Source: Falseniella ignava CCUG 37419 (lineage in GTDB: Bacteria; Bacillota; Bacilli; Lactobacillales; Aerococcaceae). Taken from it: DNA of 46,775 bases. This document shows positions 15,649 through 27,083 of the stretch, one piece after another (position 1 is the stretch's first letter; the number at the start of each line of letters is the position of its first letter). The notes below the pieces were generated by a model. It was not told where the DNA came from, did not search any database, and was given only the letters and a program-made list of their open reading frames with translations. The translations under genes and the position numbers were made by a program. The DNA is taken from NCBI RefSeq assembly GCF_000301055.1, contig NZ_JH932300.1, positions 616,464 to 663,238 of the forward strand. The letters run 5' to 3'.

Positions 15649-15850
15649 AGAAAGACTCCTTTTAAAATAATTGTTCGATAATATATATTATGTAAACTAA
15701 TTAATATGAAAGATAAAAGTTTGACTAACACCCTATGACACTTTATCATTCGCATTCTTGAGAATCCACTTGTGAACTTATTTTCAAGTAGCTTACCACA
15801 AAGCTACCATACGTTATATCCCCAGTCAATGATTAAATTACATTAAAAAT

Positions 15851-15891
15851 AAAAGCAAGCCAACCCTATCAAAATAGGTTGGCTTGCTTTT
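15851..15891 (-). terminator. Terminator of the left secreted-protein operon
   Basis: A long stem, AAAAGCAAGCCAACCCTAT (15851-15869) with its complement at 15874-15891, lies just after the stop codon of the 15,904-16,446 gene. A diverged copy follows the duplicate gene at 23,827. Confidence 0.88.
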
Positions 15892-15903
15892 ATTTAAAAG
15901 GGT

Positions 15904-16446
15904 TTACTCAGATTCAGATTTAAGTGTGTATTCTATATTATCTAAGATTAACTTATCATCTTCAATTTGTGCGTCAATGACAACAACTTTGTTATATCTA
16001 ACTCTTAGAACGTTATCTTTATTATAGATATCAATTCCATTAAATTCTATAATAAACGATCCATTTATTTTAACGACATATTGAACTTGGTCATAAATTT
16101 TAGACAATTCTCCATAAATTACTCTATCAGCAAGACCTTGTTCTTCGAGTTCCTTAGCTTTTGAAACTAAAGACTCATTCGGTTGATTTTGACTTGGCAT
16201 AGTTGGATTTGCATTTTTAATTGCCGCTTCGTCTTCTATTTGTAAGTATGGTATGATTTCAATAAATTTTTCGTATATAGCACCTCCAGCAAAAGATAGG
16301 ATTAATGAATCTTCCGAAATTAAAATTTGTTCAATAACCGCATTTTCGTCTGAAGTTGTATATACTTTGTAATTTTCTTCAGCAAATATATTATGTGAAG
16401 GTAACAGCAACACGATAGAAACGATGGTTAAAAATAATTTTTTCAT
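15904..16446 (-). CDS. Exported 180-residue protein, third gene of left module
   Basis: The signal peptide (KKLFLTIVSIVLLL, cleavage near IFA/EE) is followed by a roughly 160-residue mature domain of mixed beta/helix character with no cysteine. It contains an Asn/Gln/Pro linker (NPTMPSQNQPNESL), a charged helix (KAKELEEQGLADR) and a beta-rich end. I do not recognise the family. A nearly identical copy lies at 23,827-24,363. It overlaps the upstream gene by one base (TAATG), so the three genes are translationally linked. The plus-strand module ends with a similarly sized exported protein (18,432-19,004) that is not obviously homologous. Role unknown; co-export with the two small proteins is the only strong clue. 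Confidence 0.78.
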   Translation of the reverse strand: MKKLFLTIVSIVLLLPSHNIFAEENYKVYTTSDENAVIEQILISEDSLILSFAGGAIYEKFIEIIPYLQIEDEAAIKNANPTMPSQNQPNESLVSKAKELEEQGLADRVIYGELSKIYDQVQYVVKINGSFIIEFNGIDIYNKDNVLRVRYNKVVVIDAQIEDDKLILDNIEYTLKSESE

Positions 16447-16796
16447 TAATCTACCTCCACTAAAATTTCTCTGCTCTGAATAGGTGCAATATTACCAGTT
16501 ACTGTACCGGAATACAGTGCATACCACAAATATCTTTTTCTAGCACTAGGACCGAGCCTTCTCTCCATATAGGAAAACGAAAGAGTTCCGGAGTATACAC
16601 CATCATTGTAATAAAATGTCTTGGAAAACAATGGTGGATATTCACCATCGCCTATAAGTACCCATTGACTAACCCTTTTGGTATAGTAACCCATTAATTC
16701 ATTCTCATTATCTAACTGGCTGGAGGCTGAAGTTGTAGTTGGTTTAGTAAAATTAAAAACTAAAAGAAAGCTTAAAACAAGAAAGATTTTTTTCAT
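16446..16796 (-). CDS. Small exported YSG-motif protein, second gene of left module
   Basis: A 116-residue precursor with a signal peptide (KKIFLVLSFLLVFNF, cleavage near TSA). The mature part carries TFYYNDGVYSGTLSF, then GPSARKRY, YALYSGTV and APIQSREI. The pattern Y-Y-x-[DN]-G-x-x-x-G-x-L followed about 25 residues later by [AY]-x-Y-[SK]-G-x-V recurs in all four small proteins of this locus, suggesting a common small beta-fold. Its closest relative in the window is 17,703-18,077, which shares GPxAxK and PI..R..EI. It lies 2 bp after the first gene and overlaps the third by one base. Function unknown. Confidence 0.75.
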   Translation of the reverse strand: MKKIFLVLSFLLVFNFTKPTTTSASSQLDNENELMGYYTKRVSQWVLIGDGEYPPLFSKTFYYNDGVYSGTLSFSYMERRLGPSARKRYLWYALYSGTVTGNIAPIQSREILVEVD

Positions 16797-16798
16797 TT

Positions 16799-17146
16799 TT
16801 ATTCAGCCTCCGTTTTTATTATAACTTTTTGCATTGGGATAGGTCCATCAACTGGATACACATAACCACTATAAACAGCAAGAGGTACACCTGCCATATT
16901 TTTATAATCAATCAGCTGTAAATATCCATGCCAGGGTCCATCTCTATAATAAAATTTGTATGGTGGTTTAATAGTATCAGGTGACAATAGTACCTTATGT
17001 TGGTCTATCCACATTCTTCTAATAGTACTTAAACTTTCAGTAACAGGATTATTAGTAAACTCTTGTGCGGAAACATTCGACATGAAAATTGTTTCTTGTA
17101 ATATAAAAATACTAAGAACAATAAAAGCTTTTTTTATCATTTTCAT
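16799..17146 (-). CDS. Small exported YSG-motif protein, first gene of left module
   Basis: A 115-residue precursor; signal peptide IKKAFIVLSIFIL... with cleavage near VSA/QE. The mature region has KFYYRDGPWHGYLQL and AVYSGYVYPVDGPIP, the shared motif of this locus. It matches 18,080-18,439 best (YSGYLYPINGPRP). GGGGGG upstream provides the ribosome site. It is transcribed from a strong divergent promoter at 17,212-17,240. No cysteines and no double-glycine leader, so it is not a typical bacteriocin; it is exported by the general Sec route. Function unknown. Confidence 0.75.
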   Translation of the reverse strand: MKMIKKAFIVLSIFILQETIFMSNVSAQEFTNNPVTESLSTIRRMWIDQHKVLLSPDTIKPPYKFYYRDGPWHGYLQLIDYKNMAGVPLAVYSGYVYPVDGPIPMQKVIIKTEAE

Positions 17147-17180
17147 TCATTTCCCCCCTATTATTAAAAAATCTTAAGTG

Positions 17181-17194
17181 ATACAGATATGTAT
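17181..17194. promoter_or_regulatory. Near-palindromic operator-like site in left-module leader
   Basis: ATACAGATATGTAT is one base from a perfect palindrome and lies about 10 bases into the transcript. The orphan duplicate has the perfect form ATACATATATGTAT at 24,397. A related ATATCTGTA occurs in the right-module leader (17,664-17,672). Confidence 0.4.
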
Positions 17195-17211
17195 AGCGCC
17201 ATACTAACCGT

Positions 17212-17240
17212 AATATATCAAAAGAAATTAATTTAGTCAA
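17212..17240 (-). promoter_or_regulatory. Promoter of left secreted-protein operon
   Basis: On the minus strand TTGACT (17,235-17,240) and TATATT (17,212-17,217) are exactly 17 bp apart, an excellent sigma-A match 66 bp before the first gene. Confidence 0.75.
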
Positions 17241-17587
17241 CTCTATATTACATTTTGGTTAAACTTTAATGTATTATTTCTAATCATATCTTGAAATTAT
17301 CAGGAAAACATAAATGGATTAGGGTTGTTCGTCAAATAAAAGTATGTGTGAACATTAGAAAACAATATCCTGTCGATTCTTCTTGATCCTTCATAGTTAT
17401 AGTTGATTATACTAATAATGAAAGTTTCACTTGAAAAAAGTCTATCTGTGCACCCCTTTTAAATTTAAAGTATAGTTGTGCTTCTTTGAAAAGTAAGGTT
17501 TATTTTAAAATATAACGAACATTTATGCATATTAACGTCATACCTGAACATATTTACTGCATTATATTACAAAATCGAAATTAAATA
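17241..17587. other. AT-rich spacer between divergent modules
   Basis: No convincing gene in this 347-bp stretch. TAGGGTTGTTC near 17,318 is shared in reverse with the resolvase-associated repeat region near 22,136-22,146, possibly a relic of recombination. Confidence 0.4.
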
Positions 17588-17616
17588 TTGTAACCTTTTT
17601 ATCATCGTGTTATAAT
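17588..17616 (+). promoter_or_regulatory. Promoter of right secreted-protein operon
   Basis: TTGTAA (17,588-17,593) and TATAAT (17,611-17,616) with a 17-bp spacer give a strong sigma-A promoter and a leader of about 80 bases. Confidence 0.75.
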
Positions 17617-17644
17617 CATTTTAATAAAACTGAAAGGAGGTTTA

Positions 17645-17677
17645 TTGTCGCACAATATTGTTATATCTGTAAAGTAG
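17645..17677 (+). CDS. Possible 10-codon leader peptide (TTG start)
   Basis: AAAGGAGG (17,633-17,640) is one of the best ribosome sites in the window, yet it is too far (62 bp) from the next gene. Four bases later TTG opens a frame reading SHNIVISVK after the initiator, ending at TAG. It may be a translated leader controlling the operon, or a chance. The weak points are the TTG start and short spacing. Confidence 0.3.
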   Translation: MSHNIVISVK

Positions 17678-17702
17678 TCAGGAAAAGAAAGGATATAGAA
17701 AT

Positions 17703-18077
17703 ATGAAAAATAAAAAACATTTTTATTACTTGCTTTCACTATGTTTTGTATTGTCCTGTACTCCAGTAAGCGATCAGAAAGTTAATGCCGATAATTTCAC
17801 AAATCAATTTGGTTCTTCTGATTCAATCGATTTACAGTCTAAAGTTATTTATCATACTGTTTATTATCCTTATTCAATTTATAACATGAATATAAATTCA
17901 AAAAAATTCAAGCCGATTCCGAATACGTATTATTATAATAATGGTTCTTCTCAAGGTATTTTATATCTTCAATCTTGGGAATCGGGACCTAACGCATATA
18001 AAGCTACCTATAAAGGATATGTTGGAAGTCAATACCCTATTCCTGCAAGAGATAAAGAGATCAAAGAAAGAGGATAA
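17703..18077 (+). CDS. Small exported YSG-type protein, first gene of right module
   Basis: A 124-residue precursor. The N-terminus has KNKKHFYYLLSLCFVLSC, which could be a lipobox (VLSC) or a Sec signal cut later (VNA/DN). The mature part contains NTYYYNNGSSQGILYL, GPNAYKATYKGYV and YPIPARDKEI, the locus motif, and pairs best with 16,446-16,796. GAAAGGAT lies about 8 bp upstream. The stop is 2 bp before the next start. If it is a lipoprotein it would be surface-tethered while its partner is released; this differs from the left module. Function unknown. Confidence 0.75.
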   Translation: MKNKKHFYYLLSLCFVLSCTPVSDQKVNADNFTNQFGSSDSIDLQSKVIYHTVYYPYSIYNMNINSKKFKPIPNTYYYNNGSSQGILYLQSWESGPNAYKATYKGYVGSQYPIPARDKEIKERG

Positions 18078-18079
18078 AT

Positions 18080-18439
18080 ATGAAAAAATTAAAAATTATT
18101 TTCGCGATGTTATCTGTGTTCACTCTAACTAATACAACTATATCTATTAATCAAAATTCGGTAGCTAGTGCTGTTGAATTAAATAGCTTGCCACCTAGAA
18201 GAATATATTTTGAATTTTATTCAGACACGAATTATGGTCCTTATTATACTATGGAAAGAACAGAAGCTGGTGCAACATATACCGGTAAATTAGCACGTAC
18301 AACACAGTTTCATGATGCTAAAATAGCCCTTTATAAATACTCTGGTTATTTATATCCTATTAATGGTCCTAGACCTGGACAATTTAAAGTAAAAAATTTT
18401 GAATTACTATTTAATCGAGGTGAAAATTTAAATGAATAA
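18080..18439 (+). CDS. Small exported YSG-motif protein, second gene of right module
   Basis: A 119-residue precursor with a Sec signal (KKLKIIFAMLSVFTL, cleavage near VASA). The mature protein holds TMERTEAGATYTGKLAR and LYKYSGYLYPINGPRPGQ, matching the left-module protein 16,799-17,146 (YSGYVYPVDGPIP). Thus the first and second genes are in swapped order between the modules. It starts 2 bp after the first gene and overlaps the third by 8 bp. Function unknown. Confidence 0.75.
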   Translation: MKKLKIIFAMLSVFTLTNTTISINQNSVASAVELNSLPPRRIYFEFYSDTNYGPYYTMERTEAGATYTGKLARTTQFHDAKIALYKYSGYLYPINGPRPGQFKVKNFELLFNRGENLNE

Positions 18440-19004
18440 AAAATATAAGAATATTTTTCTTTACATGATAGTTCAAATGTTTTTATTAATTCCAGTTTTT
18501 TCAATATTTATTAATTCTGCTTCTGCAAATGAAATTAAGTATGATGATTTTATCGGGGTTTATCAAATAGAAGATGATTCGCAATTAAAGTATGTTGAAA
18601 TAGAAGAAGGATTAGTAACTTTATACTCTGATAAGTACAATCCTTTTGATGCAATTGATCAAAAAGATACTTATCATTTATTACTTGAAGCGGTTTATGA
18701 TTTAATATATAATCCTCATTTATCTTCTTTAACTGAACTAGATGAGAAAGAAAATGACCAAGAAGTTATAATTGAATTAATCGAGTATACTTCTGATAAT
18801 AAAGATGAATTTAATTTTAATACTGATTATTTAGTTCGTATCGAAGCTAAGGCGGATCATTTCATTTCAAAATCTACCAATCAATTTAAAATTAAACTTA
18901 AACCGAACAGTTCAATTTTACTAAAACTTAACGAAGATGGCGACTTAGAAGATGCACATAATAATGTAACTTTTAAACGCATTGAAATGGAGAAAGATAA
19001 TTAA
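18432..19004 (+). CDS. Exported 190-residue acidic protein, third gene of right module
   Basis: Signal peptide with hydrophobic core FLYMIVQMFLLIPVFSIF and cleavage near ASA/NE. The mature region is strongly acidic, with VYQIEDDSQLKYVEI, a Leu/Asp-rich helix and beta-rich YLVRIEAKADHF. It takes the same position and size as the 180-residue protein of the left module but clear sequence similarity is not visible to me. It could be a structural counterpart. The 8-bp overlap with the previous gene implies coupling. A terminator follows. Confidence 0.75.
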   Translation: MNKKYKNIFLYMIVQMFLLIPVFSIFINSASANEIKYDDFIGVYQIEDDSQLKYVEIEEGLVTLYSDKYNPFDAIDQKDTYHLLLEAVYDLIYNPHLSSLTELDEKENDQEVIIELIEYTSDNKDEFNFNTDYLVRIEAKADHFISKSTNQFKIKLKPNSSILLKLNEDGDLEDAHNNVTFKRIEMEKDN

Positions 19005-19033: not shown

Positions 19034-19072
19034 AAATAGGATTGGTAAAGAAAAACTTTACCAATCCTATTT
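19034..19072 (+). terminator. Terminator of right secreted-protein operon
   Basis: A 17-bp perfect stem around AAAAA, with arms AAATAGGATTGGTAAAG and CTTTACCAATCCTATTT, is followed by TTTAC. Confidence 0.88.
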
Positions 19073-19342: not shown

Positions 19343-20786
19343 CATAGTGTAAAATTTCTTGTGTAACCTCCAAAGTCCATAGAAAAAGGGACCTTTATCT
19401 TGTAAGATTGTAGTTACGACAAAACAATCACTTACAGGAGGTCCCATATGGAAAACTTTAACACAAAATTAATGACAGCACTAGCTAAAGGTGAGTCTAT
19501 TCATGAAATTTTTAGACAAGCCTTGGAGGATGCAGTCAATCTTTTGCTAGAATCCGAAAGAACCGTCTTCTTAGATTATGAAAAATGGGATATTAGAGGA
19601 TACAATTCTGGAAATTCAAGGAATGGTTATTACTCTCGGCGTTTAAAGACGGAATATGGCACCCTCGAACTCAAGATACCCCGAGATCGCTTGGGTGAAT
19701 TAGAAATTCAAACGGTTAAAGCCCTGAAAGAGTCTCATTCGCATCTCGAACAAATGATTATTTTGATGTATCAAAAAGGGATTACGACTCGTGAAATATC
19801 GGATCTCATCGAAAAAATGTATGGGCATTATTATTCAGCAGCTACCATCTCGAATCTATCAGACAGTTTTAAAGACGAATTGTATGCTTATCGTCAGGAA
19901 GTGATTCAGGCTGATTATGTGTGTCTTTATTGCGATGCAACCTTTATCCCAGTGAGACGAGGGACGGTTTCTAAAGAAGCTGTGCATACCATCGTGGGCA
20001 TTGATTCGAAAGGCTATAAGAAAATACTCGATTTTCAAGTATATCCTACAGAGTCAGCGCTCCATTATCGTGAAATGCTTCAAGATTTGAAACGTCGCGG
20101 TCTCCAACAGGTCCTACTCTTTGTTTCAGATGAATTAACCGGTTTAGCAGAAGCCGTTACCCATGAATTCCCTCAAGCCTTACACCAAAGTTGTTGGACC
20201 CATCTTTTGAGACAAATGGGTTCAAAAGTGAGAGTAAGTGATCGTTCAGAAGTTCTAGCGGCTTTAAAACAGATCCCCAAAGCTTCCAATATCAAGGAAG
20301 CGACACAGCTACTGGGTGAATTCTGTCAACAATGGGAATCTAAATATCCAAAACTGGTAAAACAGATGAGAAACAAACAGAATCTCTTCTCTTTTATGCA
20401 TTTTCCAAAAGTGATTTGGCCTTCATTGTATACCAACAATCTTTCCGAAAGTATCAATAAACAACTGAAGCGACGTACAAAAACGAGAGAACAATTTCCA
20501 CATGATTATTCATTAGAGAAAACCGTTTACTGTTATGTTTCAGAATATAACACACGATTTAGCCAACGAATACATAAGGGATTTGGACAAGTAACGTTTG
20601 AATTAGAGGCGCTCTTAGCACAGAAACAATCCGTTAAACGGAGTCAAATGACACTAAAGAAGAATGAAACACACGTTTCATAAGTAATCAATTAAACACT
20701 AAATACTGTACTAAAATTATCCAATGAACTAAGACATATAAAATACAATTTTACAATCGAGTTTACACAATTTTTTTGACACTACC
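19343..20786 (+). mobile_element. IS256-family insertion sequence, intact
   Basis: 1444 bp with imperfect terminal inverted repeats of about 26 bp: left TAGTGTAAAATTTCTTGTG, right (reversed) TAGTGTCAAAAAAATTGTG. It is bordered by the 8-bp direct repeat ATTTTCTG, the duplication size expected of this family, and holds one full transposase gene. It inserted near the 3' end of the membrane protein gene at 20,763-21,206, changing its last residues, and separated it from the ABC ATPase remnant. Confidence 0.88.
19448..20683 (+). CDS. IS256-family (mutator-type) transposase
   Basis: A 411-residue DDE transposase. Visible signatures: NGYYSRRLKTEYGTLELKIPR near residue 60, GITTREISDLIEKMYG near 115, the first catalytic aspartate in LYCDATFIPVRR near 163, a second in LFVSDELTGL near 228, CWTHLLRQ near 252, and TNNLSESINKQLKRRTK near 335 with the catalytic glutamate. 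AGGAGGTCCCAT precedes the ATG. Full length and uninterrupted, so potentially active; it differs from the other IS256-type copy at 34,467. The ends and target duplication are given in the mobile element entry. Confidence 0.93.
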   Translation: MENFNTKLMTALAKGESIHEIFRQALEDAVNLLLESERTVFLDYEKWDIRGYNSGNSRNGYYSRRLKTEYGTLELKIPRDRLGELEIQTVKALKESHSHLEQMIILMYQKGITTREISDLIEKMYGHYYSAATISNLSDSFKDELYAYRQEVIQADYVCLYCDATFIPVRRGTVSKEAVHTIVGIDSKGYKKILDFQVYPTESALHYREMLQDLKRRGLQQVLLFVSDELTGLAEAVTHEFPQALHQSCWTHLLRQMGSKVRVSDRSEVLAALKQIPKASNIKEATQLLGEFCQQWESKYPKLVKQMRNKQNLFSFMHFPKVIWPSLYTNNLSESINKQLKRRTKTREQFPHDYSLEKTVYCYVSEYNTRFSQRIHKGFGQVTFELEALLAQKQSVKRSQMTLKKNETHVS

Positions 20787-21206
20787 ATTTTCTGACTTTG
20801 AAGTAATAATTTTTGTTATTAAATAACTAATAGTCACATACATTATTAAGGTAAATATCAGTTGTGATAAGTCTATTGGACTATTTGCAATTTCGATAGA
20901 GGTCTCCCCTACTTCTCTACCATTTCCTAATCTAAAGGCATCCCATTTTCCATTACTCTTAACAATAAGACCAAAGATTATATAAATTATAAAGCTTGTT
21001 ATAGGTAATAAATAGTGGTGATTGTTAACCTCGTTAGTAAGCTTATATTCCTTTTTTATTAATATAGAATTGACAATTATAGGTAATATTAAAACTAAAA
21101 GAACTATACCCATACTCATTTTGTCTATAAATAAAGCTAGAATCAAAAAAATCAACGCATTGATTATAATTGATTTTAAGTAAGTATTTTTTGTAGTGTT
21201 TTTCAT
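20763..21206 (-). CDS. Four-span membrane protein, 3' end altered by IS256
   Basis: A 147-residue hydrophobic protein with about four membrane segments (residues 12-30, 33-50, 66-84, 113-133). I do not recognise the family; similar small proteins sit beside CPBP proteases and ABC transporters in bacteriocin-immunity loci. The current stop lies inside the IS terminal repeat, so the tail NGSVKKIV is IS-encoded. Deleting the IS restores a tail of DKNKKEE and a TAG stop 2 bp before the ABC ATPase start. The CPBP gene is 13 bp upstream. Function was probably transport or immunity, now likely impaired by loss of the ATPase. Confidence 0.7.
   Translation of the reverse strand: MKNTTKNTYLKSIIINALIFLILALFIDKMSMGIVLLVLILPIIVNSILIKKEYKLTNEVNNHHYLLPITSFIIYIIFGLIVKSNGKWDAFRLGNGREVGETSIEIANSPIDLSQLIFTLIMYVTISYLITKIITSKSENGSVKKIV
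20787..20794 (+). repeat. 8-bp target duplication, right copy
   Basis: ATTTTCTG, second copy, directly after the IS256 right end. Confidence 0.85.
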
Positions 21207-21219
21207 AAAAATCTCCTTT

Positions 21220-21810
21220 TTACATATAAAAAAAATCTACTAAAGAATTGTTTAGCCAGTGAAGTGCAAAAGCATTTTCATATCCAAACTTATCATATAA
21301 AATATATAGAACAATAGACATAGGAAACTTGCTTATTATATTTATAAGTACATCTACATTTAAATGTAATATTAAAGCAAATAATATGGATCCTATTACT
21401 ATTGCGTATTTCTTATCAAATCCTCTTAAAAGTATTTCAAATATTATGAACCTAAATAAAAATTCTTCACTACTAGCCACAATTAAATTTCTAAAAATAT
21501 TTATACTATCAATCTTCAATATATATTTAAAAAATATAAACCCTATTAAGATATAAATTGTATAATTTTTAAGGTTAATCTTTAAATATCTATAATCTAT
21601 GCCATAAATTTTTTTAGCGATAAAAAAAGGTATAATAACAAAAAAAATGAGCATACACACAGTTAGCCAGAAAGTAGATAGAAGATTAAAATTTTGATTA
21701 TTAGAACTTATAATGGTTAAAAAACCAGATAAGGCATAACTTATACCAGCAATAGCTATTAAAGCAAAAGATATTAAAATAGATTCAGTTTTTTTAGAAT
21801 TGTTGTTCAT
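21220..21810 (-). CDS. CPBP-family intramembrane metalloprotease
   Basis: A 196-residue polytopic protein with the Abi/CPBP (CAAX protease and bacteriocin-processing) motifs: motif 1 SSEEFLFRF (EExxxR) near residue 114, motif 2 LFALILHLN (FxxxH) near 143, motif 3 HWLNNS near 184. Family role: membrane glutamic/metalloprotease, often for bacteriocin self-immunity or peptide processing. A very strong ribosome site, AGGAAGGAGG, precedes the ATG. It was first in an operon with the membrane protein and an ABC ATPase that is now lost. An orphaned immunity locus is a reasonable reading. Confidence 0.88.
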   Translation of the reverse strand: MNNNSKKTESILISFALIAIAGISYALSGFLTIISSNNQNFNLLSTFWLTVCMLIFFVIIPFFIAKKIYGIDYRYLKINLKNYTIYILIGFIFFKYILKIDSINIFRNLIVASSEEFLFRFIIFEILLRGFDKKYAIVIGSILFALILHLNVDVLINIISKFPMSIVLYILYDKFGYENAFALHWLNNSLVDFFYM

Positions 21811-23826: not shown

Positions 23827-24363
23827 TTACTCGGATCCAAGTGTATATTCTATATTATCGAATATTAATTTATCATCTTCAATTTGTCCCTCAATGACAA
23901 CGACTTTGTTATATCTAACTCTTAGAACGTTATCTTTATTATAGATATCGATTCCATTAAATTCTATAATAAACGATCCATCTATTTTAACGACATATTG
24001 AACTTGGTCATAAATTTTAGACAATTCTCCATAAATTACTCTATCAGCAAGACCTTGTTCTTCGAGTTCCTTAGCTTTTGAAACTAAAGACTCATTCGGT
24101 TGATTTTGACTTGGCATAGTTGGATTTGCATTTTTAATTGCCGCTTCGTCTTCTATTTGTAAGTAAGGTATGATCTCAATAAATTTTTCGTATATAGCAC
24201 CTCCAGCAAAAGATAGGATCAATGAATCTTCCGAAATTAAAATTTGTTCAATAACCGCATTTTCGTCTGAAGTTGTATATACTTTGTAATTTTCCTCAGC
24301 AAAAATATTTTGTAAAGGTGACAGCAACACGATAGAAACGATGGTTAAAAATAATTTTTTCAT
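23827..24363 (-). CDS. Orphan duplicate of the 180-residue exported protein
   Basis: The start at 24,363 (after GGGGAGG) is preferred over an upstream in-frame ATG at 24,402, since it restores the signal peptide KKLFLTIVSIVLLS. The protein differs from 15,904-16,446 at only about ten positions (for example LSPLQ for LLPSH, EGQ for DAQ, shorter tail GSE), so the copies are recent. Its upstream leader (24,384-24,412) resembles the leader of the whole left operon, not the coding region that precedes the other copy. The two small YSG genes have thus been deleted here. It stands alone between IS30 and IS21 debris, probably still expressed. Confidence 0.78.
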   Translation of the reverse strand: MKKLFLTIVSIVLLSPLQNIFAEENYKVYTTSDENAVIEQILISEDSLILSFAGGAIYEKFIEIIPYLQIEDEAAIKNANPTMPSQNQPNESLVSKAKELEEQGLADRVIYGELSKIYDQVQYVVKIDGSFIIEFNGIDIYNKDNVLRVRYNKVVVIEGQIEDDKLIFDNIEYTLGSE

Positions 24364-24396
24364 GAATATACCTCCCCTTTTTAAAAAACTTATGTG

Positions 24397-24410
24397 ATAC
24401 ATATATGTAT
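24397..24410. promoter_or_regulatory. Perfect 14-bp palindrome in leader of orphan copy
   Basis: ATACATATATGTAT is self-complementary and corresponds to 17,181-17,194. A -10-like TATAAT lies just upstream on the minus strand (24,414-24,419). Shared by both copies, so a regulator site is plausible. Confidence 0.4.
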
Positions 24411-24734: not shown

Positions 24735-25310
<576 letters not shown>

Positions 25311-25833: not shown

Positions 25834-27083
25834 GGTGTGTTGTAAAATGAATTGCAACACTCAGTAATTTCTGAAATACAAAAAGACATGAAGATTCGTT
25901 ATACTTAAATCACCACAAAATAAGCAAAGGAGAATCTTCATGTCCACAAATAATTATAACACAAATCAGAACCGATCATTTACTCATTTAGACTTTAAAG
26001 AAAGACAGCTAATAGAAAAATGGTTAAATGAAGATATTAGTAAAGCAGAGATAGGCAGACGCCTTGGACGTAACCGCTCCACAATCCATAGAGAAATTAA
26101 TCGGGGCACTGTAGAACAGATCAAGCAGATTAATGGCTATAATAAGAAAGTCACTGTGTACTACTCAGATTCCGGTCAATCTGTTTATGAAAATAGACGT
26201 TTAAAGTGTGTCCGCAAAAAGATTGTTTCTTTCTCGAGCGCTTTCTTCTCTGCGCTGGAGGATGCCTTCACTAAAGGATTGTTTAAAGGTAAACAGCGGC
26301 TCTACAACATAAAGACATTTATAGCTCTTTATAGAAAAAAGCATCCTGTAGAGAATATACCAACGTTTAAAACCGTCTATTCATATATACGTCAAGGTCT
26401 TTTGTCTATCAAACCACATGACTTACCTGTCATGTATCGTCTGAAACCAAGAAAAAACCAGCATAGTAACCCTAAGGGTAAAAACAAAAGAATCCTAGGT
26501 ACCAGTATCACCGATCGTCCAGAGGACGTCTTATCAAGAGAAACATTTGGACACTGGGAAGCTGATCTGGTTAAAGGGAAGAAAACGAAAAATGAACCGG
26601 CAATCATTACCTTGGTAGAGAGAAAAACACGCTATGCCATTACTAAGAAAATCAGCGACTATAAAAGTCAAACGGTTAAAAATGCCTTTGAAGAGATTCT
26701 AGCAGATAACCCTAACCTATTTGCTTCAATAACTTTTGATAATGGTTCTGAATTCTCCTTAATGTCTGAACTCAATACAGACGTATATTTTTGTCATGCC
26801 TACGCATCCTGGGAACGGGGCTCAAACGAAAACTTCAATAAACTGTTGAGGGAATTCATCCCTAAAGGAAAATCCATCCATCTTTTTTCAGAAATGGATA
26901 TCGATCAAGCCACTCAGGCAATCAATAAAAGGATTAGAGAAGTGATAGGGCTACGTTCATCAGAAGAGTATTTTCAACAATGTCGTATTTAAATTTTTTC
27001 TTCTCCTAGGGGAAGAAGTAAAGAGATTTTAAGTTCATCGAATCATGTAACAGAAAGTGTTGCATTTAACTTTACAACTCAAG
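25834..27083 (+). mobile_element. IS30-family insertion sequence, intact
   Basis: 1250 bp. The ends match when one is reversed: left ...GTTGTAAAATGAATTGCAAC, right (reversed) ...GTTGTAAAGTTAAATGCAAC. One full transposase gene. The 13-bp AAGATAAAATAAA on each side is longer than the 2-3 bp common in this family, although a few members (such as IS1630) make long duplications. Confidence 0.85.
25940..26992 (+). CDS. IS30-family transposase
   Basis: 350 residues. Helix-turn-helix LDFKERQLIEKWLNE...ISKAEIGRRLGRNRSTIHREINRG (about 17-55); TVYSYIRQGLL near 145; catalytic DDE: first D in FGHWEADLVKG near 207, second in ITFDNGSEF near 265, E in SWERGSNENFNKLLREFIPKG near 292. Motif order and length are typical and the frame is intact. 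GCAAAGGAGAATCTTC precedes the ATG. Probably active. It lies just downstream of the hexuronate operon, between it and the debris island. Confidence 0.94.
   Translation: MSTNNYNTNQNRSFTHLDFKERQLIEKWLNEDISKAEIGRRLGRNRSTIHREINRGTVEQIKQINGYNKKVTVYYSDSGQSVYENRRLKCVRKKIVSFSSAFFSALEDAFTKGLFKGKQRLYNIKTFIALYRKKHPVENIPTFKTVYSYIRQGLLSIKPHDLPVMYRLKPRKNQHSNPKGKNKRILGTSITDRPEDVLSRETFGHWEADLVKGKKTKNEPAIITLVERKTRYAITKKISDYKSQTVKNAFEEILADNPNLFASITFDNGSEFSLMSELNTDVYFCHAYASWERGSNENFNKLLREFIPKGKSIHLFSEMDIDQATQAINKRIREVIGLRSSEEYFQQCRI

What the first reader, a model, noticed from the sequence alone, without database searches (positions are those of the whole stretch)
15904..19004. Two divergent three-gene modules of small exported proteins, matched pair by pair
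Seen: left (-) and right (+) operons each encode two small Sec-exported proteins (115-124 residues) and one larger exported protein (180-190 residues), with overlaps or 2-bp gaps. The four small proteins share Y-Y-x-[DN]-G-x-x-x-G-x-L and Y-[SK]-G-x-[VL] motifs. 16,799 pairs with 18,080 (YSGYVYPVDGPIP / YSGYLYPINGPRP) and 16,446 pairs with 17,703 (GPxAxK, PI..R..EI), so order is swapped between modules. Inference: a previously undescribed secreted three-component system, possibly an antagonism/immunity or surface-binding set, duplicated and diverged.
Basis: partly seen in the sequence, partly recalled or inferred. Interest (0 to 1): 0.7.

Follow-up and report, generated by a model that had tools for sequence, protein, structure and literature searches.

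The report
Twin cassettes of small secreted proteins
A bacterium of the Aerococcus family carries, back to back, two versions of an undescribed three-gene cassette whose proteins all look exported; the same gene order occurs in related bacteria, and the best guess, unproven, is a bacteriocin-like weapon with its own protection protein.

Summary
Three of four small proteins carry the first motif, four of four the second. The small proteins form two paralogous types: A (16446, weakly; 17703) and B (16799, 18080). The larger proteins (C, 15904 and 18432) are one diverged family (leave-out profile test). Order A-B-C recurs in Facklamia hominis and Globicatella sanguinis. Lactobacillus-like genomes have B-A plus an undetectably related membrane-anchored third protein and an XRE/Rgg-like regulator.

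The two modules are not each other's closest relatives, so a local duplication is unlikely. C is often solitary: 21 further C loci examined had no small partner; one is in this window at 23827-24363. The small proteins share a core, modelled as a beta-meander, found across Bacilli. None of the six proteins passes a Pfam or NCBIfam cut-off, and the core is not lactococcin-972-like.

Best mechanism, inferred: secreted antagonism, A and B as effectors and C as an exported, perhaps calycin-like protector, confidence 0.33. Surface binding is the main rival (0.30).

The parts
15904..16446 (-). C (left): exported 180-aa protein of the C family
   Evidence: ORF; member of the C family by leave-out profile, 22.0 bits against 8.9 for the best decoy
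16446..16796 (-). A-type small exported protein (left), 116 aa
   Evidence: YYNDGVYSGTL, YSGTV; A by profile, weakly
16799..17146 (-). B-type small exported protein (left), 115 aa
   Evidence: AF2 model of the mature part: beta-meander core
17147..17702 (.). AT-rich divergent intergenic region (26% G+C) with one promoter-like site per direction: 17240-17212 (-) and 17588-17616 (+), each 10 of 12 with TG before the -10
   Evidence: consensus matches only (35 sites in the scanned region against a mean of 23.8 in shuffles)
17703..18077 (+). A-type small exported protein (right), 124 aa
   Evidence: closest to G. sanguinis A
18080..18439 (+). B-type small exported protein (right), 119 aa; lacks the first motif
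   Evidence: closest to F. hominis B
18432..19004 (+). C (right): exported 190-aa protein of the C family
   Evidence: ORF; 37.9 bits by leave-out profile against 7.2 for the best decoy
15846..15894 (-). hairpin downstream of the left C, probable terminator; a similar stretch follows the orphan C at 23827
   Evidence: read directly; alignment; not listed by the scan
19034..19072 (+). terminator-like hairpin (17 pairs) downstream of the right C
23827..24363 (-). orphan C copy, coding DNA 96% identical to the left C, no small partner (ORF listed from 24402; start placed at 24363 by alignment)

Best explanation
Shown: a cassette of two small paralogous proteins with export leaders (A, B) and one larger one (C), present in two diverged versions back to back, each laid out as one operon behind a promoter-like site. 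The alignments show no conserved residues of an enzymatic kind; the conserved core of A/B is Gly, Tyr and Leu, and models predict beta-structure for both families. Inferred: A and B are released through the Sec pathway and act together outside the cell on competing bacteria, in the manner of a bacteriocin that needs no dedicated transporter; C, perhaps a calycin-like barrel, stays at or near the surface and protects the producer by binding A/B or their target. On this reading the solitary C copies are orphan immunity genes, and cassettes with different A/B/C variants coexist because each protects against its own type. In other lactic acid bacteria relatives of the small proteins sit beside pheromone-type regulators and have other third partners (membrane-anchored protein, lipoprotein) or an ABC transporter, as expected if the protection partner is exchangeable.
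For: Gene order A-B-C in F. hominis and G. sanguinis; A-B plus a lipoprotein-like third protein in G054; B-A plus a TM-anchored protein and an XRE regulator in two Lactobacillus-like genomes (genus recalled from gene content) and, with a truncated B, in L112. Accessory: small proteins in 6 of 76 family genomes with the first profile; in sister genome G031 the antiporter and nrdI genes adjoin (684 bp apart) and in F. hominis the operon lies between them. Orphan C copies: 3 of 6 C genes in this genome, with dN/dS 0.18-0.31 among the three near-identical copies. A and B barely differ at silent sites between the two Lactobacillus-like genomes (dS 0.051 and 0.037) while the third gene (0.89), the regulator (0.32) and a neighbouring ABC-F gene (0.48) do, as if A/B had been exchanged recently. 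Of 21 small-protein loci counted, 8 have an Rgg-like XRE or Agr-type regulator within 3.5 kb (my reading); profiles of Rgg or Agr type support 5 of these. In two Streptococcus-like genomes the small gene is followed by ABC-transporter genes (ATPase of one confirmed). C model: barrel core at pLDDT near 90, best VIA Z 6.6 to lipocalin-like chains.
Against: No activity was tested. C is often solitary in Aerococcaceae and keeps its neighbours in related genomes (for example G032 and G033), which also fits an independent surface role. The Aerococcaceae C proteins that I read carry plain Sec leaders without a lipobox (by eye), so nothing shows that they stay on the cell. The third proteins of the Lactobacillus-like genomes, of G054 and of G318 are not detectably related to C (hhalign 0.1%, 0.9%, 0.6%). 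No regulator or transporter was recognised among the ORFs at 13-22 kb of the window (by eye). Only 1 of 4 sister genomes shows the adjoining arrangement; in the other 3 the antiporter has other neighbours, so the ancestral order is not settled. Two of the 21 loci hold decayed small genes (G051, G318). The small core also occurs inside phage tail-region proteins, which suggests binding rather than killing. Co-divergence of B and C over six loci is weak: Pearson 0.84 (8 of 720 permutations reach it, driven by one sister pair), Spearman 0.30 (89 of 720).
Confidence: 0.33

Rival explanations
1. A, B and C are surface- or matrix-binding accessory proteins (binding to cell wall, glycan or host material), not weapons; A and B form a heteromeric binding module and C is a separate lipocalin-like ligand binder that happens to be co-transcribed.
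For: Conserved core residues are structural only (A13). The same core sits in ~980-residue proteins behind tail-type genes (by eye) in a prophage-like region; one of them has a bacterial Ig-like domain and a relative in Bacillus phage G. Single exported small homologues without a C-like partner recognised by eye in other orders of Bacilli. Solitary C genes with kept neighbours.
Against: Does not by itself explain the tight A-B pairing, the pheromone-type neighbours, the apparent A/B exchange between Lactobacillus-like genomes or the near-identical dispersed C copies.
Confidence: 0.3
2. C is an independent gene family (for example an exported inhibitor or lipid binder) and the A/B operon has only been joined upstream of C copies; the three-component system is an accident of operon formation in a few genomes.
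For: C matches in 21 Aerococcaceae genomes, small proteins in 6 of 76 with the first profile and in 9 of the sampled family genomes at E <= 1e-6 with a broader one; 21 further C loci examined have no small neighbour. Homology among the three near-identical C copies starts at the RBS/ATG.
Against: C directly follows small genes at six separate loci (window left and right, G000 138 kb, F. hominis, G. sanguinis, G034), and other third exported proteins take its place elsewhere.
Confidence: 0.18
3. The cassette belongs to cell-cell signalling: the small proteins are pheromone carriers, processed signal precursors or modulators of an Rgg/Agr circuit.
For: 8 of 21 small-protein loci lie within 3.5 kb of an Rgg-like or Agr-type regulator. 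Three loci (L023, L025, L072) sit near a signal peptidase I-like gene, confirmed by profile for L025 only.
Against: No such regulator near the window modules (the only Rgg-type match of this genome is on another contig). Conservation lies in a folded core, not in a short C-terminal peptide. Regulators next to an operon more often control it than receive it.
Confidence: 0.12

Closest known systems
Lactococcin 972 family (PF09683), Sec-secreted bacteriocins
   Same: Small Sec-exported proteins of lactic acid bacteria; Streptococcus-like relatives of the small proteins also have a regulator and an ABC transporter beside them.
   Different: Profiles unrelated (hhalign 0.1%); two paralogous proteins per operon; the window modules have an exported C instead of the membrane protein and ATPase (those partner genes are recalled, not from a call).
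Class IIb two-peptide bacteriocins (recalled)
   Same: Two small exported products from one operon with a third gene.
   Different: Full Sec leaders and ~90-residue mature proteins; no double-glycine leader, and no peptidase-transporter or accessory gene recognised by eye among the ORFs at 13-22 kb.
Lipoprotein immunity proteins of lantibiotic producers, NisI/SpaI type (recalled)
   Same: Exported beta-rich protein proposed to protect the producer outside the membrane.
   Different: No lipobox seen in the Aerococcaceae C proteins read; no sequence test against NisI or SpaI was made; protection not shown.
Calycin / lipocalin-like fold proteins (YxeF 2joz, Omp19 7mhw, S. pneumoniae lipocalin lipoprotein 5cyb)
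   Same: Model of G. sanguinis C aligns at Z 6.6, 6.2 and 5.0.
   Different: Z under 8 may mean only a common arrangement; low-confidence insertion at residues 60-94; no sequence similarity found.

Membership tests
Lactococcin_972 (PF09683) | sequence profile of the mature domain | tested here: not met
   PF09683 is not among the Pfam matches up to E 1 of the six window proteins; hhalign of the core alignment against 19 PF09683 members 0.1%, while A against B gives 95.3% and core against 11 members from other Bacilli 97.8%
Lactococcin_972 (PF09683) | downstream membrane protein and ABC ATPase (recalled) | tested here: not met
   Third gene is C and the next ORF is a transposase-like one on the right, none on the left up to 15648; judged by eye on the ORFs
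Class IIb two-peptide bacteriocin | double-glycine leader and dedicated peptidase-transporter (recalled) | tested here: not met
   Leaders of 22-32 residues with hydrophobic cores; no transporter recognised at 13-22 kb (by eye)
Calycin / lipocalin-like fold (C) | calycin-like beta-barrel | tested here: inconclusive
   AF2 on 4 sequences, mean pLDDT 71.7, barrel core near 90; Foldseek no match at E <= 0.001; VIA best Z 6.6, 86 residues, rmsd 3.1
Bacteriocin / immunity system (functional class) | killing by A/B and protection by C | not testable with these tools
   Needs experiments
Known anti-phage defence proteins (PADLOC) | profile match | tested here: not met
   0 families for each of the 6 proteins at E <= 0.1

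The most novel reading that the evidence does not exclude
A new kind of Gram-positive secreted antagonism: paired non-enzymatic beta-proteins sent out by Sec alone, with an extracellular calycin-type protector that has spread through Aerococcaceae as orphan immunity genes, built on a Bacilli-wide small binding domain that phage tail proteins also use.
Probability: 0.18. Interest if true: 0.75.

Novelty: new variant of a known kind. Interest (0 to 1): 0.48.

Why it matters
The six genes belong to two exported protein families for which no model passed the cut-off in the Pfam and NCBIfam copies searched. The small family is spread over Bacilli, including Lactobacillus-like genomes and 221 Enterococcus plasmid records (E. 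faecium in all 20 rows shown), so one activity assay could annotate many unnamed secreted proteins. If A/B inhibit competitors and C protects, the solitary C genes would be a readable map of past competition in the Aerococcaceae, and Sec-only two-protein bacteriocins would be easy to express.

Tried and rejected
Lactococcin 972 membership: rejected. Anti-phage defence: no PADLOC match. PHROGs: only two matches, E 0.056 and 0.095, among 6 proteins. Solved relatives by sequence: best E 0.025 (small family) and 0.17 (C), implausible molecules. Fold of the small proteins: model weak (mean pLDDT 59.6, core 70-80), no match at E <= 0.001 in PDB or viral models, best VIA Z 4.0; no family name taken from these. 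Local duplication as the origin of the twin modules: rejected on nearest relatives. Third proteins of the Lactobacillus-like genomes, G054 and G318 as relatives of C: not supported. Co-divergence of B and C: weak. Plasmids and phages: no near-identical DNA to the region in plasmids; tblastn of the 138-kb B found nothing in plasmids or phages, nor did the L059 small, the Lactobacillus-like B, G. sanguinis C or the L085 small in plasmids. Viral-contig scans with small-protein alignments found no relative. A lead to the Listeria protein LMxysn_1693 (E 0.67; search listing seen) was too weak to follow. L022:2527-3021, which I first took for lactococcin-972-like, has no Pfam match up to E 1, so the label is dropped.

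Rows dropped before counts: of the loci viewed, eight with matches weaker than E 1e-5 (G327, G367, G298, G265, G366, G262, G071, G333; loci L068-L075) are not among the 21. G034:C60, with E 0.008, is counted. Of 50 match rows for C, 5 have small partners; 21 further loci were examined, the others were not. One examined C locus (L098) has only about 340 bp of contig upstream of it.

Literature: searches (PubMed Central library only; listings seen, and of PMC3017865 eleven passages) showed no description of this cassette. Most subscription journals and preprints are not held there, and papers cannot be searched by sequence.
Full report
Observation. The six ORFs are real and at the stated coordinates. 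Left operon on the minus strand: B 16799-17146, A 16446-16796, C 15904-16446. Right operon on the plus strand: A 17703-18077, B 18080-18439, C 18432-19004. The intergenic region between the operons is 556 bp at 26% G+C, with one extended -10 promoter-like site in each direction (consensus matches only). The modules are AT-rich (31% left, 27% right) against 39% for the left flank and 35% for the window. A transposase-like ORF follows the right module at 19448 (named by eye).

Relatedness. Shuffle tests give z 5.8 to 8.2 for four of the six window pairs of small proteins; 16446-18080 and 17703-18080 are at chance directly and are joined through relatives. With profiles built from F. hominis and G. 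sanguinis, 17703 and 18080 fall clearly into A and B, 16799 into B, and 16446 weakly into A. The two C proteins do not match each other directly (z 1.2). In leave-out profile tests the left C group scores 20.9-22.0 bits (15.3-20.0 if the 138-kb C is also left out) and the right group 37.9-59.6 (24.1-43.9 with two more relatives out), against at most 9.9 for 480 shuffled decoys in any of these runs. They are one diverged family.

Copies in this genome. The genome (1.77 Mb, six contigs, the only member of its genus in the set) has a third locus at 138 kb with one B-type small gene and a C. It has six C genes in all: three with small partners and three alone, including one in this window at 23827-24363. 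Two of the solitary copies (window 23.8 kb and 365 kb) have coding DNA 96% and 92% identical to the left C, with dN/dS 0.18-0.31 among the three. Similarity begins at the ribosome-binding site or ATG and fades just past the stop and terminator. The third solitary copy, at 534 kb, is 53% identical in protein to the right C.

Relatives. Of 76 genomes of the family, 6 including this one match the first small-protein profile at E <= 0.01; with a broader profile 9 family genomes of the order sample match at E <= 1e-6. Two were named by the genome scan: G. sanguinis NBRC 15551 and F. hominis CCUG 36813, both with the order A-B-C; this places the window in the Aerococcaceae. G054 has A-B followed by a lipoprotein-like ORF, and G034 (9% contamination) a small gene followed by two C genes. 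In the order, 55 of 395 genomes match at E <= 0.01, but many of the weak matches cover only the leader region of long ORFs. I counted 21 loci from 17 genomes: own genome 3; G029, G054, G055, G172, G146, G364, G394, G002, G233, G001, G051, G003, G318 and G236, one each; G036 and G034, two each. In G051 and G318 the small gene is decayed. By my reading, tandem small genes are at 9 of 21. A further exported or anchored protein directly follows at 10 of 21: C family at 6, undetectably related at 4 (G054, G172, G146, G318). A regulator of Rgg-like XRE or Agr type lies within 3.5 kb at 8 of 21 (G055, G172, G146, G394, G233, G051, G236, G034).

Strength of the regulator link. Rgg profiles match the regulators of L023 and L063 above cut-off. 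That of L056 matches at E 0.02, that of L057 is 92% identical to it, and those of L059 and L112 match only as helix-turn-helix or other distant models. L067 and L022 have AgrA/AgrC-like or AgrB-like neighbours, below equivalog cut-offs. In 20 genomes the Rgg profile gives 59 matches; three small-protein loci (G055, G051, G172) have one within 3.5 kb. By hand arithmetic on rounded genome sizes about 0.2 would be expected for some 24 loci in 47.6 Mb. Nothing of this kind was recognised near the window modules.

C family. In the same order sample 30 of 395 genomes match, 21 of them Aerococcaceae. The search lists 50 match rows; 5 have small partners. I fetched 20 further C loci and looked at the window copy: 0 of 515 ORFs there is a small partner, by a profile that scores all 15 known small proteins at 16.9 bits or more and the best other ORF at 4.3 (several of the 15 helped to build the profile). 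The remaining rows were not examined. C is thus often a solitary gene, which argues against an obligate three-part system but fits orphan immunity genes equally well.

Accessory nature and exchange. In F. hominis the operon lies between nrdI and an antiporter gene that are divergent neighbours 684 bp apart in sister genome G031; nrdI identity is 86 residues over 123 and 130 aa. In the other three sister genomes searched (G030, G032, G033) the antiporter has other neighbours within 1.5 kb, so this is one empty site of four. Between two Lactobacillus-like genomes A and B have dS 0.051 and 0.037 while the third gene (0.89), the regulator (0.32) and an ABC-F gene (0.48) have diverged. L112 is filed as a 4.5-kb Bacillus velezensis plasmid but is bounded by ISLcr2 and IS30 transposases and reads B-fragment, A, anchored third protein, HTH; it may be a Lactobacillus fragment (inference).

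Breadth. With a 59-position core profile, 24 of 398 Bacilli genomes match at E <= 0.01, some only over about 18-20 residues of long ORFs. Fuller matches include single exported 85-121-aa genes in other orders and two ~980-residue proteins behind phage tail-type genes, named by eye; the first has a relative in Bacillus phage G, gp426. The L068-type small protein matches 221 Enterococcus plasmid records, E. faecium in all 20 listed, with a 67-aa ORF beside it in the two records opened.

Structure. The small B model (8 sequences) is a four-stranded meander over residues 36-84 at pLDDT about 55-81, the first 32 residues under 50, without a convincing fold match. The G. sanguinis C model (4 sequences) has a barrel core near pLDDT 90 with a low-confidence insertion. 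Foldseek finds nothing at E <= 0.001; VIA gives Z up to 6.6 with lipocalin-like and fatty-acid-binding chains, a hint only.

Mechanism. Shown: co-directional tight genes, export-type leaders, conserved order, patchy occurrence, orphan C copies, no enzymatic signature, no known family above cut-off. Inferred: secreted antagonism with C as protector (0.33), against surface binding (0.30), an independent C joined by chance (0.18) and signalling (0.12). The data do not separate the first two well; an activity test would.

Noticed in passing
window 23827-24402 (-): Orphan C gene, coding DNA 96% identical to the left C, between mobile-element remnants (an IstB-like ORF at 24815-25201 and an IS30-like transposase at 25940-26992, named by eye).
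   Followed up: yes
window 21220-21810 (-) and 20763-21206 (-): CPBP-type membrane protease (PF02517) and a 147-aa membrane protein just beyond the transposase right of the module; such proteases often serve as bacteriocin self-immunity (recalled).
   Followed up: partly
L056:4483-5735 and L057:4358-5610: A and B nearly identical at silent sites between two Lactobacillus-like genomes while the neighbouring genes have diverged.
   Followed up: partly
L112 (NZ_CP102867.1): 4.5-kb record filed as a Bacillus velezensis plasmid, bounded by ISLcr2 and IS30 transposases and carrying a Lactobacillus-like B-A-third-protein-HTH set; perhaps misassigned.
   Followed up: partly
L113:952-1587, L114:4001-4636, L068:4531-5166: 140-aa exported relative plus a 67-70-aa ORF, beside recombinase genes in L113 and L114; the 140-aa protein matches 221 Enterococcus plasmid records; function unknown.
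   Followed up: partly
L059:1519-5861 and L061:1344-5681: Streptococcus-like loci (genus recalled) with a divergent XRE regulator, one small relative and ABC-transporter genes (ATPase of L059 confirmed); the small gene has the highest dN/dS of the four compared (0.43).
   Followed up: partly
L079:4579-7548, L080:4649-7582: The small core inside ~980-residue proteins behind phage tail-type genes, with a relative of L079 in Bacillus phage G gp426.
   Followed up: partly
L023:928-1446, L025:3178-3657, L072:3932-4384: Signal peptidase I-like gene near small-protein genes at three loci (L025 confirmed by Pfam; the others by eye).
   Followed up: no
L067:4927-5766: 179-aa exported glycine-rich protein and 88-aa membrane protein next to an AgrA/AgrC-like pair and a small relative; looks like a bacteriocin locus (by eye).
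   Followed up: no
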